From positions 1-43,391 of the forward strand of contig CADCVR010000097.1 of assembly GCA_902806205.1 (NCBI GenBank): a stretch of DNA of 43,391 nucleotides, given 5' to 3'. Under the pieces are notes generated by a model. It did no database searches, was not told the origin of the DNA, and worked only from the letters and a program-made list of their open reading frames with translations. The DNA is from an uncultured Solirubrobacteraceae bacterium. GTDB taxonomy: Bacteria; Actinomycetota; Thermoleophilia; Solirubrobacterales; Solirubrobacteraceae. This document shows positions 27,558 through 42,567 of the stretch, piece after piece (the stretch's first letter is position 1; each line of letters starts with the position of its first letter). The position numbers and the translations under genes were made by a program.

Positions 27558-27761
27558 GCGGGATCGCCCCTCCTCCCTGCGAGCCGAGGCGCCGGCGTCG
27601 CCGCGAGACGGCGTGAGCCCGCCGGCCTCGCAGAAGTTGACTGACTGCGAGCCGTTGACACCCGCCGGCGCGCGGGCCGCGGAGAGAGCGTCTTCGCGCC
27701 ATCTCACGATGCGGGGCGCCCCCCACCGTGCTGGCGCCCTCAGCGATCGCTGGTACGGGCG

Positions 27762-28127
27762 GTGCCCGCCGATGCTCTTCACCTCCTGCCCGCCGAACCA
27801 ACGGCCGAATACGACGGCGGCGTCTCAGCCTGCCGCGTCCCCGGATGCACGCGACCGGCACGGGGACAGCTTCGTTTCTGCGTCGTCTGCGAGCACCGCT
27901 ACCGAGCGGTTACGGCTCGTCGCGGGGGGTTGGTCGAGTTGCTCTGCGCAGCGCTCGCTGCTCTGGGCGACCCGCTCTACACCGCCTTCGGTGCGCGGCG
28001 CAAGGAGCTCGGCGCGCATGTCCTCGCCCATCTCGAGGAGCTCAACGCGATCGAGGTGTACGTCCCGGCCGCGGCGGTCGAGGACTTCGTGGCCGAGCTG
28101 GACGCCAGGGCACAAGAGGCGCGATGA
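27762..28127 (+). CDS. Small protein with Cys4 zinc-ribbon-like motif
   Basis: A 121-aa protein. Cysteines 24, 29, 40 and 43 form a C-x4-C-x10-C-x2-C pattern (ACRVPGCTRPARGQLRFCVVCEHR) that looks like a metal-binding ribbon; the rest is helical (VELLCAALAALGDPLYTAF, ELGAHVLAHLEELNAIEVYV). No family is recognised. GTG 27762 is a reasonable start but weakly supported. The stop overlaps the next gene as ATGA, so the two are probably translated together. Given the next protein, a DNA- or sigma-binding role is conceivable, but nothing in the sequence proves it. Confidence 0.65.
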   Translation: MPADALHLLPAEPTAEYDGGVSACRVPGCTRPARGQLRFCVVCEHRYRAVTARRGGLVELLCAALAALGDPLYTAFGARRKELGAHVLAHLEELNAIEVYVPAAAVEDFVAELDARAQEAR

Positions 28128-29551
28128 CCACTTCGCTTCGGACGAGTGCAATCCTCTCGCCAGGAGCCGTAGTTGAAGAGAAAGCTGGGACGGAGAGCGC
28201 GCCCTCGGGCGCGTCCGGGCAGGCGACGAGCGGGACGGGGATGCCGGCGAGAAGGGTCAAGGGAGTAACGGCAGAACGCAGGAGTCGGGTGCTGCTCGCG
28301 CGCCGCGGGCGGTCCTGGGACGCACAGGAGGTGGCCGAGCACCTCATGTCCTGTCGCGGGCAGATGCTCGGCGGGCTGAGGCACAAGACGCCATGGGCCG
28401 GCCTCGACGTCGACACGCTCGACTCGTGCTTCGGTCACGGCGCGGCCGTCATCGCCAGGGTGGCCGCGAGCGGCCAGCGTCCGGAGTGGCGCAGCGCGAA
28501 GGATCTCGAGAAGGCGCAGATCGCCGCCTTCCGACATCAAGCGCTGGACCACTGGAAGCGCGTCAACGCGCAGTCTCGAAAGGGCGACCGCACCGCGGTT
28601 GCCTTCGATCCGGAGCGACACGCGTCCAAGGACGCTCCGATGGACCGGCTGTTCGCGCAGCCCGACCTCCACGCGATCCAGCGTGATCTGCTCGCGGAAC
28701 TTACCGACCCGGAACTGCGTGCTTTCTGGGCAGCGGTCCTGGGAGAAGCCGCGAGCTTCAAGACGGCGGGCGATCGGCTGAAGCTCACCAAGGCTCAGGT
28801 CATGGCGCGGACGCGCGCCGGTCGGTCTGCGTTCGCCGGCTACCTCGATCGGCGCGAGACGGGCGAACTCTGCCGGGAGCGATGCGAGGACATCGTTGCC
28901 CTGCGCGCCGGGGCGGCGAACGACCTGCGGGCTGAGCGTGCGATGGCCCATCTTGAGTCCTGCTACGCGTGCTCGCTGGTTCACCAACCGCGCATCGGGG
29001 CGTTCGAGCGGGGCATTCTCGGTCTGACTCCCACCGGTCTGCTGCTTCGCCTCGTGACGCGCGCCGGCGAAGTGGCGTCCGTCCCGGCGACGCGTTGGAC
29101 CGAGGTGGGCGCGGGCGCGCGTCTGGTCGCGGGCGGCGTCGCGGCGCTGACCGTGGCCGGGTCGGGCGTCGGCATCGAGGCTGCGCTCAACGACCGTCCG
29201 GGGGCACGCGGGCCGCGGCCCACGGAGAAGCGACGATCACCCGCGGTGCCGGTCGAGGGCTTCGTGACGCCGGCGCGCGTGCTGCCGCGCTCCGTCCGCA
29301 ACACCCCGACCCCCGTGTCGCCAACGGTCGCCTCCAAGCGCCGGAGCGAGGCCGACCGCGGCGCCACGAAGCAGCCCAGCCCCCGCGGGACCGCCGCTGC
29401 ACCGACGACTCGCAGGCCGGCCGCGATCGCCAGCGGACCCGCCGCGACGGAGTTTTCCTTCGAGCGCGGCGGAACGCCGGCGGCGCGCGAGTCCGCTCCT
29501 GCACCCCCGACGAAGACGCCGTCTCCGGCGACCGAATTCTCTGGACCATGA
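28124..29551 (+). CDS. Sigma-factor-like/zinc anti-sigma-like fusion membrane protein
   Basis: A 475-aa protein. Residues about 60-240 show the layout of a divergent ECF sigma factor. A region-2-like segment (AAFRHQALDHWKRVNAQSRK) is followed by a helix-turn-helix-like end (ELTDPELRAFWAAVLGEAASF, then DRLKLTKAQVMARTRAGRSAF). Next comes H276-x3-C280-x2-C283 (AHLESCYACS), the zinc anti-sigma (ZAS) signature, preceded by further cysteines (LCRERC). A single hydrophobic segment lies near 333-352 (RLVAGGVAALTVAGSGVGI), followed by a long Pro/Thr/Arg-rich tail that would be outside the cell. Start ATG 28124 overlaps the previous stop, and its own stop overlaps the next start (ATGA both times). Sigma-like assignment is by eye and needs a profile search; the ZAS-TM part is stronger. 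Confidence 0.65.
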   Translation: MTTSLRTSAILSPGAVVEEKAGTESAPSGASGQATSGTGMPARRVKGVTAERRSRVLLARRGRSWDAQEVAEHLMSCRGQMLGGLRHKTPWAGLDVDTLDSCFGHGAAVIARVAASGQRPEWRSAKDLEKAQIAAFRHQALDHWKRVNAQSRKGDRTAVAFDPERHASKDAPMDRLFAQPDLHAIQRDLLAELTDPELRAFWAAVLGEAASFKTAGDRLKLTKAQVMARTRAGRSAFAGYLDRRETGELCRERCEDIVALRAGAANDLRAERAMAHLESCYACSLVHQPRIGAFERGILGLTPTGLLLRLVTRAGEVASVPATRWTEVGAGARLVAGGVAALTVAGSGVGIEAALNDRPGARGPRPTEKRRSPAVPVEGFVTPARVLPRSVRNTPTPVSPTVASKRRSEADRGATKQPSPRGTAAAPTTRRPAAIASGPAATEFSFERGGTPAARESAPAPPTKTPSPATEFSGP

Positions 29552-31671
29552 CCACCACCGACCAGACGAGACCATCCATGACCGAGACGCCCCATCGATC
29601 CATCGGCGACCGCCTGACCCGGCCACTGATGCCGCTCTTGCTGTTCGCCTGTCTGCTTGCGCAGTCCAGCACCGCGTCGGCTGCGACGTACACCGTCGAC
29701 AGTTGCCAGCACCCGGATGGAGCCTACGCAGGAAGAGACGGCTGGACGGCTTCGCACAGCGGCGTCTATGTCTACACTGGCGACAGTTGTGCTGGCGGAG
29801 GACCACTGGACGCTTATTGGGCCTCAGATATCGAGCACAACTACTCTGATCTAGCTCGTTGGACGTTCGCGGCCCCGACTGGCACCACTATCCGGAGTTT
29901 GAGTGGTACTCGGTCGGCACGAGCGGCTGCCGGACGTCCCTATGGGACGCCAGTCACCGTCATCAAGGCCGATGATGGTTTTCTTGAACAATGCGGTAGC
30001 GTGTTCCCCTGCTCGGCCGTGGACGGTGAATTTGTCTACGCCGTCAATTCGGCGAATTCGGTGGCCTTCGGAGTCGAGTGCGGTGGTGCGCCTGGTGGAC
30101 GATGCCCGGGTGGTACCACCGCAATCTCCGTGCGGAGGTTGAGAATTACTCTGGCGGACAATTTCTCGCCTACGTTCAACGGTCCCCCCACCGGTTCGCT
30201 CACCTCTCCCACGTCCATCACCCGCGTCCGCACCGTCAACTACTCGGCCAACGACATCGGCGGAGGCGTTTACCGGCAGCGACTGCTCGCGGACGGAAGG
30301 GAAGTCGCGGCCGGTCCGGTCGATGGGAACGAAGGGCGGTGCGTGCGCTATCCGGTGGGGAACGGCTTCTCGTCACCAGTCCCCTGTCGGACCACAGTGA
30401 GCGGCAGCATGGCCTACGACACCGCCGGGCTGTCCGACGGTCCCCACGAGTTGGAGCTCCAGGTCTTCGACGCGACGGACGAGAACAAGGTGGTCAGCTC
30501 GTGGAGCGTTCAGGTGGACAACGCGCCCCCTTCGGTCGGTGCCGTGAGCGTAGACGGCATCGCCCGCGACGGTGAGGCGCTGCGCTGCAGTGCCGCGGTG
30601 GAGGGGCAGTCCCCGCGTGTCGCGTACCAGTGGTTGCGTTCGAACGCCGATGGCTCGGACGTCAAGGACATCGCCGGGGCGACCGAGGCGACCTACCGGC
30701 TCGTGAGCGCGGATGTCGGGAAGAAGCTGCTCTGCAGGCTCACGGGGACCGACGGTGGGGGCTCGGCCACGAGGACGTCGTCGCTGACTTCAGGCCCCTT
30801 CGCGGGTGGCGGGCTGGTCGGGGCGAAGGATTCGTCAACGCCTGCCACTCAGCCCGGCACTGCCCCGCCTTCCACTCAGCCAGGCACTGCCCCGCCTGCC
30901 ACTCAGCCCGGAACTGCCCCGCCTGCCGCCCAGACTGGTAGTGCCCCACCCGCCGGTGAGGCGGGTACTACTCCGGCGAATAGCGATGGCCCTTCAGCGA
31001 GCAGCGTGGCGCCGCAGTCGTCGGCACCGGCAGCTCAACTGTCGCCGCTGCCCGCCTGCACGGGCGCGACGGTGGCGATGTTCGGCAGCGTGAGCCCGCT
31101 CAAGCGCTCTTACAGACGCAGCGGGTTCGGGCTCTCTGGCCGACTCATGGCGCTGAATGGGAAGAGCGGTGTAGGCGGTGCCGCGCTCGATGTGATGCAG
31201 ACCGTCACCCGCGCCGGTATGAGCCAGAGGACGAAGGTCGGAACGGTCACGACAGCGCCCGACGGATCCTTCCGAGCCAAGGTGCCGCCGGGGCCGACTC
31301 GCCTCGTCCAGCTCGTCGAACCAACCTGCGGCTCGGTCGGCCCGACCGTGTCTCAGCGCGTCCGCGGCGCCGTGCTGGGGAAGACGACCACACGCCGGGT
31401 GCGCAACAGGCAGACCGCGCGCTTCCGTGGTCGGGTGCTCGGCGGGTACGTCGGCCGGGGGCTGCCGCTCGAGCTCCAGGTCAAGGTCGGCTCGAGCTGG
31501 AAGGACGTCAAGGCCGTCACCACGAACTCGCGCGGGGAGTACCGGGTGAGCTACCGGTTCATGCGGACCTACGTGCGCTACACGTACCGCTTCCGGATCG
31601 TCACCCGCGCGGGCAGCGCCTGGCCGTACATGGCGGCCAAGAGCCGCCAGCTGAAGGTGCGAGTCAATTAG
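29548..31671 (+). CDS. Secreted surface protein with Ig-like domains and Pro/Thr repeat linker
   Basis: A 707-aa protein starting at ATG 29548 (ATGA overlap with the fusion protein). A signal peptide covers residues 20-46 (LTRPLMPLLLFACLLAQSSTASA, then ATYTV). The next roughly 150 residues are Cys-containing and Tyr/Ser-rich. Ig/cadherin-like beta domains follow (NFSPTFNGPPTGSLTSPTSI, SVQVDNAPPSVGAVSVDG, and a VAYQWLRSNADGSDVKDIAGATEATY domain resembling Ig-like surface repeats). Residues 432-467 are four 9-residue repeats of the PATQPGTAP type. The C-terminal 200 residues form carboxypeptidase-regulatory-like beta domains. There is no sorting motif or C-terminal helix, so it may be released or non-covalently bound. 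DNA at about 29680-30190 is clearly less GC-rich than its surroundings. Confidence 0.8.
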   Translation: MTTTDQTRPSMTETPHRSIGDRLTRPLMPLLLFACLLAQSSTASAATYTVDSCQHPDGAYAGRDGWTASHSGVYVYTGDSCAGGGPLDAYWASDIEHNYSDLARWTFAAPTGTTIRSLSGTRSARAAAGRPYGTPVTVIKADDGFLEQCGSVFPCSAVDGEFVYAVNSANSVAFGVECGGAPGGRCPGGTTAISVRRLRITLADNFSPTFNGPPTGSLTSPTSITRVRTVNYSANDIGGGVYRQRLLADGREVAAGPVDGNEGRCVRYPVGNGFSSPVPCRTTVSGSMAYDTAGLSDGPHELELQVFDATDENKVVSSWSVQVDNAPPSVGAVSVDGIARDGEALRCSAAVEGQSPRVAYQWLRSNADGSDVKDIAGATEATYRLVSADVGKKLLCRLTGTDGGGSATRTSSLTSGPFAGGGLVGAKDSSTPATQPGTAPPSTQPGTAPPATQPGTAPPAAQTGSAPPAGEAGTTPANSDGPSASSVAPQSSAPAAQLSPLPACTGATVAMFGSVSPLKRSYRRSGFGLSGRLMALNGKSGVGGAALDVMQTVTRAGMSQRTKVGTVTTAPDGSFRAKVPPGPTRLVQLVEPTCGSVGPTVSQRVRGAVLGKTTTRRVRNRQTARFRGRVLGGYVGRGLPLELQVKVGSSWKDVKAVTTNSRGEYRVSYRFMRTYVRYTYRFRIVTRAGSAWPYMAAKSRQLKVRVN
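30841..30948 (+). repeat. Four 27-bp tandem repeats encoding a Pro/Thr linker
   Basis: Units at 30841-30867, 30868-30894, 30895-30921 and 30922-30948; the first three are nearly identical and the fourth is diverged. Each encodes nine residues of the type P-A-T-Q-P-G-T-A-P. A flexible spacer between the Ig-like and C-terminal domains is likely, and copy number may vary. Confidence 0.9.
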
Positions 31672-31675
31672 ACCG

Positions 31676-31712
31676 TTCGCGCGGCGGCGGCCACCAGGCG
31701 CCGCCGCGCGAA
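31676..31712 (+). terminator. Strong hairpin terminator after the surface-protein gene
   Basis: A perfect 14-bp inverted repeat (ttcgcgcggcggcg, 31676-31689, with its complement at 31699-31712) with a 9-nt loop, starting 5 nt after the TAG stop. No U-tract follows, as is common in high-GC actinobacteria. Confidence 0.75.
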
Positions 31713-31755
31713 GGCCATCGGGCGGGTGTCTCGTGGCGGCGACCGCCCCCGAAGC

Positions 31756-41708: not shown

Positions 41709-41727
41709 TCGCGCCTCGAACGAGAAC

Positions 41728-41871
41728 CCACGCCGAGTTCCGGCCGCCGCGTGCGGTCGGGATCGGGGGACCCAGAGGGCTGCGAGGTGCGGTCCGGGGG
41801 CGAATCGCCGGGTGCTTTCCCGGCGTAGCGCAACGTCAGCGCGAGCCCGTCAGCTAACCCCGTAGGCGGTA
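41728..41871 (+). ncRNA. ydaO/yuaA (cyclic di-AMP) riboswitch
   Basis: The leader of the Rpf-like gene carries the conserved blocks of the ydaO aptamer in order: GCCGAGTTCCG (41733-41743), GGGGGACCCA (41765-41774), GGGGCGAATC (41797-41806) and the 3' signature CCCGTCAGCTAACCCCGTAGG (41847-41867), whose GTCAGCTAAC core is nearly diagnostic. CGCC (41731-41734) can pair with GGCG (41865-41868) as the closing stem. The GAAGGAGG ribosome binding site follows within about 10 nt and the start codon is 22 nt downstream. In other actinobacteria this riboswitch controls rpf and related cell-wall hydrolase genes, switching them off when c-di-AMP is high. No intrinsic terminator is visible, so translational control is possible. 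Confidence 0.9.
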
Positions 41872-41892
41872 AGACGCGAAGGAGGGCCGTCC

Positions 41893-42567
41893 GTGCCCCA
41901 GCCGTACCCCGCCGTGTCGTCATCTCCCGCCCTCGTGCGTCGCGCGCGCCGCACGCTGGTCCTCGCGGGGGCCGGACTCGCGCTGAGTGCCGCCACCGCG
42001 TCCGCCCAGGCGCAGGGCGGCGCCTCCGCCGGCGGAGGCGCCGAAGCCGGCGACCCGGCGGTCGCCGCGTCGCGGGCCGCGGCGCCCGCACGGAAGGCCT
42101 CGACAGGGAAGCCGACCCGGGCGACTGTCCGCTCCGTCCAGCGCAAGCTGCGCGTGCGTGCCGACGGGGTATACGGGGCGAAGACGCGCGCGGCGGTGCG
42201 CCGCTACCAGCGCCGACACGGGCTGAAGGCAGACGGTCGTCTCAGCCCCAAGACGCTCGACGCGCTGGGCGTCGTCGGCCGAGCGGCCCGCGCCCCCGCC
42301 GCTCCGGCGCCGTCCGCCGACGCGTCGGTCCTGCTCGCGGCCATCGCGCAGTGCGAGTCCGGCGGAGACCCCACCGCGGTCTCGGCCGACGGCAAGTACC
42401 GTGGCAAGTACCAGTTCCTGATCTCCACCTGGGAGGCGATCGGCGGTGCCGGCGACCCCGCCGCAGCTCCCGAGCCCGAGCAGGACCAGCGCGCGGCGGC
42501 GCTGCTGGCCGCCGAGGGCACGAAGCCCTGGCCGGTCTGTGGTCGCCAGGCGCTGTCCGCACGGTAG
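41893..42567 (+). CDS. Secreted Rpf-like lytic transglycosylase with peptidoglycan-binding domain
   Basis: A 224-aa exported protein. Signal peptide residues 14-40 (VRRARRTLVLAGAGLALSAATASAQA). A PG_binding_1 domain spans about 78-128 (VRSVQRKLRVRADGVYGAKTRAAVRRYQRRHG). The C-terminal resuscitation-promoting-factor/transglycosylase-like domain (about 145-218) has the catalytic glutamate in AQCESGGDP (Glu155), YRGKYQFLISTWEAIGG, and paired cysteines 154 and 216. It would cleave peptidoglycan glycan strands during growth or exit from dormancy. GTG 41893 is preceded by GAAGGAGG. The c-di-AMP riboswitch directly upstream fits known regulation of this class. Confidence 0.9.
   Translation: MPQPYPAVSSSPALVRRARRTLVLAGAGLALSAATASAQAQGGASAGGGAEAGDPAVAASRAAAPARKASTGKPTRATVRSVQRKLRVRADGVYGAKTRAAVRRYQRRHGLKADGRLSPKTLDALGVVGRAARAPAAPAPSADASVLLAAIAQCESGGDPTAVSADGKYRGKYQFLISTWEAIGGAGDPAAAPEPEQDQRAAALLAAEGTKPWPVCGRQALSAR

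What the first reader, a model, noticed from the sequence alone, without database searches (positions are those of the whole stretch)
27762..31671. Three-gene unit joined by two ATGA overlaps: Cys4 small protein, sigma-like/zinc anti-sigma-like membrane protein, secreted Ig-like protein
Seen: genes at 27762, 28124 and 29548 each overlap the next by ATGA; the middle protein has an HxxxCxxC motif, one membrane segment and a long Pro/Thr-rich outer tail, preceded by a segment with the layout of a divergent ECF sigma factor; the last has a signal peptide and Ig-like domains. Inference: this may be a self-contained surface-sensing or surface-protein expression system in which sigma-like and anti-sigma-like parts are in one chain. 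I know of no named system of this form.
Basis: partly seen in the sequence, partly recalled or inferred. Interest (0 to 1): 0.75.

Follow-up and report, generated by a model that had tools for sequence, protein, structure and literature searches.

The report
Sigma/anti-sigma fusion with secreted partner
The middle gene encodes a fast-evolving sigma factor fused to its own zinc anti-sigma domain and a long tail, translated together with a secreted Ig-like surface protein; the same two-gene pairing, with a previously unremarked C-terminal Glu-Phe tail motif, recurs across this order of soil Actinobacteria and makes a specific surface-sensing model testable.

Summary
The three genes and both ATGA overlaps are real. 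P2 (28124-29551) is a very divergent ECF sigma factor (region 4 by profile and predicted fold; region 2 by predicted fold and alignment) followed by a CHCC zinc anti-sigma (ZAS) domain, a weakly hydrophobic Ala/Gly segment and a Pro-rich tail. P2 belongs to a fusion family present in 93 of 101 genomes of its order. Two features look new. (1) The next gene is very often a secreted Ig-like protein sharing P3's C-terminal ~175 aa domain (36-37 of 77 loci; 30 of 32 in two families), usually joined by a 4-nt overlap. (2) The tails carry [DE]F motifs, one near mid-tail and one at the extreme C-terminus: 34 of 77 end in EF-x-P, against none of 309 other genes nearby. P1, the Cys4 protein, was found in only two genomes. 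Most likely P2 is a membrane-tethered, proteolytically released one-component sigma factor that controls its own operon and so the surface protein, inside a polysaccharide locus. Tethering, release, motif ligand and regulon are inferred. New variant of a known kind.

The parts
27762..28127 (+). P1: 121-aa Cys4 protein (Cx4C-x10-Cx2C), function unknown, lineage-specific
   Evidence: ortholog only in G005 (51-52% id, four Cys kept); weak Zf_WRKY19 match E 0.0011, below cut-off
28124..29551 (+). P2: fused ECF sigma / zinc anti-sigma / hydrophobic segment / Pro-rich tail, 475 aa; ATGA overlap with P1 and with P3
   Evidence: orthologs 51-59% identical in two MAGs of the genus
28307..28603 (+). P2 aa 62-160: divergent sigma region 2
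   Evidence: predicted fold matches two-domain sigma factors (SigL 6dv9 Z 8.2, WhiG 6pfj Z 8.1); aligned with Sigma70_r2 of relatives (24/24 of canonical members match); no Pfam hit in P2 itself
28679..28858 (+). P2 aa 186-245: sigma region 4 (helix-turn-helix)
   Evidence: CnrH region 4 Z 8.8 rmsd 2.8; SigR region 4 Z 8.3 rmsd 2.1; hhalign prob 96.3 to relatives over P2 189-284
28862..28993 (+). P2 aa 247-290: zinc anti-sigma (ZAS, zf-HC2-like) domain, ligands C250, H276, C280, C283
   Evidence: zf-HC2 E 0.066 in P2, 0.0011 in ortholog, 19/24 canonical members; four ligands 88/88
29123..29179 (+). P2 aa 334-352: Ala/Gly/Val-rich hydrophobic segment, candidate transmembrane helix
   Evidence: KD 1.53; family median position 61 aa after ZAS, median KD 1.73 against 1.43 for shuffles
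29192..29548 (+). P2 aa 357-475: Pro/Ala/Thr-rich tail, presumed outside the cell
   Evidence: composition; family tails 17% Pro, 19% Ala
29447..29467 (+). mid-tail EF motif TEFSFER
   Evidence: 89 [DE]F in family tails against 15.9 expected
29531..29548 (+). C-terminal EF motif TEFSGP (end of protein)
   Evidence: 34/77 family members end in EFxP; 0/309 control genes
29548..31671 (+). P3: secreted Ig-like protein, 707 aa
   Evidence: full-length homolog 35% id, E 1e-98, directly downstream of the P2 relative in L013
29548..29685 (+). P3 signal-peptide-like N-terminus
   Evidence: hydrophobic stretch aa 27-45 followed by ASA|AT (crude rule, no dedicated predictor)
31132..31659 (+). P3 aa 529-704: C-terminal domain (CarboxypepD_reg/Ig-like) shared by the partner family
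   Evidence: profile built from P3 aa 506-707 found in 36 of 48 downstream secreted proteins, at their C-termini; CarboxypepD_reg matches in relatives
27685..27701 (+). AGAGCGTCTTCGCGCCA, possible promoter or operator element about 61 nt before P1
   Evidence: 16/17 identical about 52 nt before P2 in G002; only exact copy in the genome; function not shown
31677..31714 (+). GC-rich hairpin just after the P3 stop, possible end of the transcript (no T-run)
   Evidence: z -2.2

Best explanation
P2 is a one-component, membrane-tethered ECF sigma factor. Its sigma regions are held inactive by the ZAS domain in the same chain; an Ala/Gly-rich helix anchors it and the Pro-rich tail with two EF motifs lies outside. 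A change at the cell surface (state of the polysaccharide made by the surrounding locus, or loading of the partner protein) exposes the chain to regulated proteolysis, releasing the sigma part. That part transcribes its own operon, so the secreted Ig-like protein P3 is made together with its regulator, and possibly polysaccharide genes. The EF motifs are docking peptides for a partner outside the cell. P1 is an optional cytoplasmic zinc protein of this lineage. Shown: homology to sigma region 4 and ZAS, gene order, overlaps, motif conservation, recurrence of the partner. Inferred: membrane insertion, proteolytic release, autoregulation, ligand of the motif.
For: Sigma plus ZAS homology: profile of clear members finds P2 at E 6e-10, shuffles no better than 0.076; fold of P2 predicted from its own clade only retrieves sigma factors; canonical members match Sigma70_r2 24/24, Sigma70_r4_2 21/24, zf-HC2 19/24, TIGR02937 24/24 and SigE structures E 3e-13. 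CHCC ligands 88/88. Family in 93/101 genomes of the order. Next gene secreted in 46/77 loci against 38/309 control genes; 36 next-gene partners share P3's C-terminal domain, 22 of them with a 4-nt overlap, plus L065 on inspection. EF motif: [DE]F in last 8 residues 46/77 against 6/309 genes and at most 3 in shuffled tails. Polysaccharide context: Wzm/Wzt, glycosyltransferases and RmlC around the window unit; glycosyltransferase or ABC-export genes also beside the other three P2-type loci. Precedent for proteolytic activation of such fusions: IutY shown, SCO4117 proposed (PMC8999054, PMC5826349).
Against: P2's clade is fast-evolving (branch 1.97) and its region 2 is not recognised by Pfam, so RNA polymerase binding is not assured. 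The hydrophobic segment is weak and is followed by an Arg-rich stretch, unusual for an outside tail. One family (f2) keeps the fusion and the EF motif but never has the partner directly downstream (0/20), so the partner is not essential to the sigma protein, nor obviously the motif's ligand. No shared -35/-10 pair was found upstream.
Confidence: 0.6

Rival explanations
1. P2 is a degenerate sigma fusion that no longer drives transcription; it works as a membrane scaffold, as an anti-sigma for another sigma factor, or as a decoy titrating one, while P3 is an ordinary surface protein.
For: Very long branch; no Pfam sigma match in P2; region 2 supported only by predicted fold and alignment. A canonical member exists elsewhere in the same genome (L058) and could do the transcription.
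Against: Region 4 and ZAS are retained with all zinc ligands; the three clade members keep many invariant residues in regions 2 and 4; the gene pair is kept.
Confidence: 0.18
2. The fusion acts as a sigma factor but the secreted protein is only a co-transcribed cargo (surface coat or adhesin) with no role in sensing; the EF motif binds a housekeeping envelope protein or protease.
For: EFxP ends are about as frequent in loci without the partner (15/36) as with it (17/36); family f2 has the motif without the partner.
Against: In families f3 and f4 the pairing is nearly invariable (30/32) with overlapping start and stop codons, suggesting fixed stoichiometry rather than loose co-regulation.
Confidence: 0.35
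3. The chain is not a membrane protein: the hydrophobic segment is a soluble Ala-rich helix and the tail with its C-terminal EF motif stays in the cytoplasm, where it is a protein-interaction or degradation signal.
For: Hydrophobicity is marginal (1.53 in P2; family median 1.73); residues after it are Arg-rich in P2.
Against: The hydrophobic maximum sits at a consistent place (quartiles 54-66 aa after ZAS) and exceeds shuffles; long Pro/Ser/Thr/Gly tails and linkage to secreted proteins fit an outside tail; described ECF48/52/53 fusions have the same layout with TM helices (PMC8999054).
Confidence: 0.12

Closest known systems
ECF52 (SCO4117 of Streptomyces coelicolor), also ECF48 and ECF53
   Same: ECF sigma, zinc-finger anti-sigma domain, transmembrane segment(s) and (ECF52) a long Pro-rich extension in one chain; Actinobacteria; activation by proteolysis proposed (PMC5826349, PMC8999054).
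   Different: ECF52 tails end in a carbohydrate-binding domain; here no such domain was found, the tail ends in an EF motif, and a separate secreted Ig-like protein is encoded next door.
IutY of Pseudomonas putida (ECF243)
   Same: Sigma and membrane anti-sigma fused; released by Prc and RseP (PMC8999054).
   Different: Iron cell-surface signalling with an outer-membrane receptor; Gram-negative; no ZAS-EF tail is described there.
SigI/RsgI of Clostridium thermocellum
   Same: Sigma factor controlled by a membrane anti-sigma with outside sensing and RseP cleavage (PMC12203970); multiple paralogues, as in family f4 here.
   Different: Two separate proteins and a different sigma/anti-sigma family; sensing of plant polysaccharides.
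Class I ZAS anti-sigma factors (RsrA, RsiW, RslA)
   Same: CHCC zinc domain (zf-HC2) next to sigma region 4.
   Different: Separate proteins, not fused to the sigma factor.

Membership tests
sigma-70 family, ECF type | sigma region 4 | tested here: met
   profile E 6e-10, region 189-284; CnrH r4 Z 8.8 rmsd 2.8; SigR r4 Z 8.3 rmsd 2.1
sigma-70 family, ECF type | sigma region 2 | tested here: inconclusive
   no Pfam hit in P2; fold search matches two-domain sigma factors; canonical relatives match Sigma70_r2 24/24
sigma-70 family, ECF type | binds RNA polymerase core and starts transcription | not testable with these tools
   needs in vitro transcription
ECF with fused ZAS anti-sigma (ECF48/52/53 type) | C-terminal CHCC zinc domain after region 4 | tested here: met
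   C250, H276, C280, C283, 88/88 in the family
ECF with fused ZAS anti-sigma (ECF48/52/53 type) | transmembrane helix after the zinc domain | tested here: inconclusive
   one marginal hydrophobic segment at a conserved place; no TM predictor available
ECF52 | C-terminal carbohydrate-binding domain | tested here: not met
   no such Pfam or NCBIfam match in P2; Pfam scan of 24 relatives lists none
ECF52 | Pro-rich extension | tested here: met
   22 Pro in the last 119 aa; family tails 17% Pro
ECF48/52/53 | match to the group-specific ECF profile | not testable with these tools
   ECF group profiles and reference sequences not held
SigI/RsgI | separate sigma and anti-sigma genes, SigI-type sigma | tested here: not met
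   single fused chain of 475 aa

The most novel reading that the evidence does not exclude
An order-wide surface-signalling system in which a membrane-tethered sigma/anti-sigma fusion displays a tandem EF peptide, the last copy at its free C-terminus, as docking site for a co-translated secreted Ig-like protein (or for an envelope protease). Occupancy of the peptide reports assembly of the surface coat and controls release of the sigma factor: a C-terminal short-peptide checkpoint for surface-layer building, expanded into several paralogous pairs per genome in one family.
Probability: 0.25. Interest if true: 0.75.

Novelty: new variant of a known kind. Interest (0 to 1): 0.58.

Why it matters
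Fused sigma/anti-sigma chains are known mostly from a few characterised cases, and what their outside tails sense is largely open. Here is a large family, in 93 of 101 sampled genomes of a poorly studied soil order, with a fixed co-encoded secreted partner in many members and a sharply defined C-terminal peptide. That gives a concrete candidate ligand-receptor pair and a short peptide to test, and a handle on how these mostly uncultured soil Actinobacteria may control their surface.

Tried and rejected
Pfam, NCBIfam and PHROGs on P1-P3 directly: no named family above cut-off. PDB profile search with P2's clade alone: no sigma hit; with relatives included, SigE and CnrH appear. Third gene of G005 (L012 1-555): same position, secreted, but no measurable homology to P3 (contig-truncated). 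ECF-type promoter search upstream (GGAAC/CGTC): no shared -35/-10 pair; only a 17-nt element shared with G002. Upstream blocks CAATTTGCG and GGGGGAGAG conserved in family f3 are absent from P2's clade and match no Rfam family. That the terminal Pro codon (CCA TGA) is conserved only because it holds the next gene's ATG was rejected: many members end EFGP with CCC TGA or CCG TAG and no overlap. Plasmid collection: no relative of P2. The genome-contig scan found only the two already known MAGs plus one weak hit in a Halobacillus (L023), not followed. Several whole-genome searches failed on the server (and later), so P3's C-terminal domain could not be counted genome-wide.

Full report
Observation. 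A GC-rich hairpin follows the P3 stop. The unit sits in a polysaccharide locus: family-2 glycosyltransferases on both sides, a WsaF-like glycosyltransferase, RmlC-type epimerase and Wzm/Wzt export genes nearby.

What P2 is. Direct Pfam gives only a sub-threshold zf-HC2. Relatives were found stepwise: 51-59% identical orthologs in two MAGs of the genus (G002, G005), a 27% relative in G003, and more distant ones in other genera. The distant ones are plain sigma factors with a zinc anti-sigma domain (Sigma70_r4_2 E 1e-6, zf-HC2 E 1.6e-4, Sigma70_r2 E 1.4e-4 in L014). A profile from four such members, without P2, finds P2 at E 6e-10, while the best of 1000 shuffled P2 sequences reaches 0.076; the matched part is region 4 plus ZAS. 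A structure of P2 aa 52-356 predicted from its own three-member clade only (mean pLDDT 63, about 90 in region 4) retrieves mostly sigma factors: Foldseek best SigE (E 0.056, probability 0.90), SigR region 4 probability 0.91. VIA-align gives CnrH region 4 Z 8.8 (67 residues, rmsd 2.8), SigR region 4 Z 8.3 (65 residues, rmsd 2.1), SigL Z 8.2 over both domains but with large rmsd. So region 4 is secure, region 2 is likely, and the four zinc ligands C250/H276/C280/C283 are invariant.

The family. The eight-sequence sigma-ZAS profile finds members in 93 of 101 genomes drawn from the order. Eighty regions from there were fetched; with eight earlier loci, 88 genes were compared, 77 with a complete tail and downstream DNA. 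Of 24 canonical members, 24 match Sigma70_r2 and TIGR02937, 21 Sigma70_r4_2 and 19 zf-HC2. P2's clade is a fast-evolving branch with L013 next to it; long branches make its exact place unsure.

The secreted partner. The next gene is secreted by a crude rule in 46 of 77 loci, against 38 of 309 other genes in the same loci. Thirty-six of these next-gene products carry P3's C-terminal ~175-aa domain at their own C-termini; a 37th (L065) was missed because the script chose another frame, and in L067 the domain protein lies one gene further. Twenty-two of the 36 are joined by an exact 4-nt overlap. By family: f1 6 of 25, f2 0 of 20, f3 17 of 19, f4 13 of 13 (L065 would make f1 7). The loci were chosen by the sigma profile, not by the neighbour, so the pairing is not a selection effect; how often the domain occurs elsewhere is unknown. 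Relatives of P3 match Big_13 and CarboxypepD_reg.

The tail motif. Tails are 19% Ala, 17% Pro and only 1.5% Phe, yet 89 of 147 Phe follow Asp or Glu (15.9 expected). Many tails have one such motif mid-tail (EFTPE, EFGFE, EFSFE) and one at the very end: 34 of 77 end in EF[GASQE]P and 46 of 77 have [DE]F in the last eight residues, against 0 and 6 of 309 control genes and at most 3 in 200 tail shuffles. Related sequences are not independent, but terminal [DE]F motifs occur in all four families sampled (the exact EFxP end in three of them), with different codons and with or without an overlapping next gene. P2 has both copies, TEFSFER and TEFSGP. The motif is as common without the partner as with it (15/36 and 17/36 ending EFxP), so its ligand may be a general envelope protein rather than the partner.

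P1. A Cys4 protein found in only two genomes of the genus, all four Cys kept. In G002 the P2 gene has no P1; a 17-nt element (16 identical) lies before the first gene in both (27685-27701 here), unique in the genome at 0 mismatches. It may be a promoter or operator of the unit; not shown.

Mechanism. From the known fusions (ECF52 SCO4117, IutY; PMC5826349, PMC8999054): sigma held by ZAS, tethered in the membrane, released by proteolysis. Applied here, release would raise expression of the operon and so of the surface protein. Steps shown: domain homology, gene order, overlaps, motif. Steps inferred: membrane insertion, outside tail, proteolysis, autoregulation, link to polysaccharide.

Known versus new. 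The single-chain sigma/anti-sigma form is known (ECF48/52/53). The ECF52 carbohydrate-binding domain was not found, so P2 is not filed as ECF52; its ECF group could not be tested. No paper describing the Thermoleophilia family, the partner pairing or the EF motif was found in the held library, which is not proof of absence.

Noticed in passing
window 41721-41883 (+): c-di-AMP riboswitch (RF00379, 59 bits, E 2.5e-11) directly before the gene at 41893-42567.
   Followed up: no
L103, L107, L113, L116, L118, L082, L095, L099, L108 upstream of the sigma gene: Conserved upstream blocks CAATTTGCG and, about 30-75 nt later, GGGGGAGAG before canonical sigma-ZAS genes of one family (GGGGGAGA in 16/88 upstream regions against 0 in shuffles); no Rfam match; possibly the promoter or operator of the system.
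   Followed up: partly
window 27762-31671: Third-position GC of P1-P3 (0.78-0.82; 0.65 in the first 220 codons of P3) is lower than in the two neighbouring glycosyltransferase genes checked (0.91 and 0.94), hinting at recent arrival or fast change.
   Followed up: no
L016 5815-12845: One sigma-ZAS gene followed by two tandem secreted Ig-like proteins, the second starting with a 4-nt overlap; the same genome has further sigma-partner pairs (L097, L106, L126).
   Followed up: partly
L058 320-2038 (G000 contig C34): A second, canonical sigma-ZAS fusion in the window's own genome, ending SEFGP, without a secreted partner next door.
   Followed up: no
L060, L061, L062 downstream of the fusion gene; also inside the gene after L014's fusion: A small cytoplasmic protein (LCFIEPQDAIRVIAESVGR...) recurs downstream of canonical fusions in family f1 in place of the secreted partner.
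   Followed up: no
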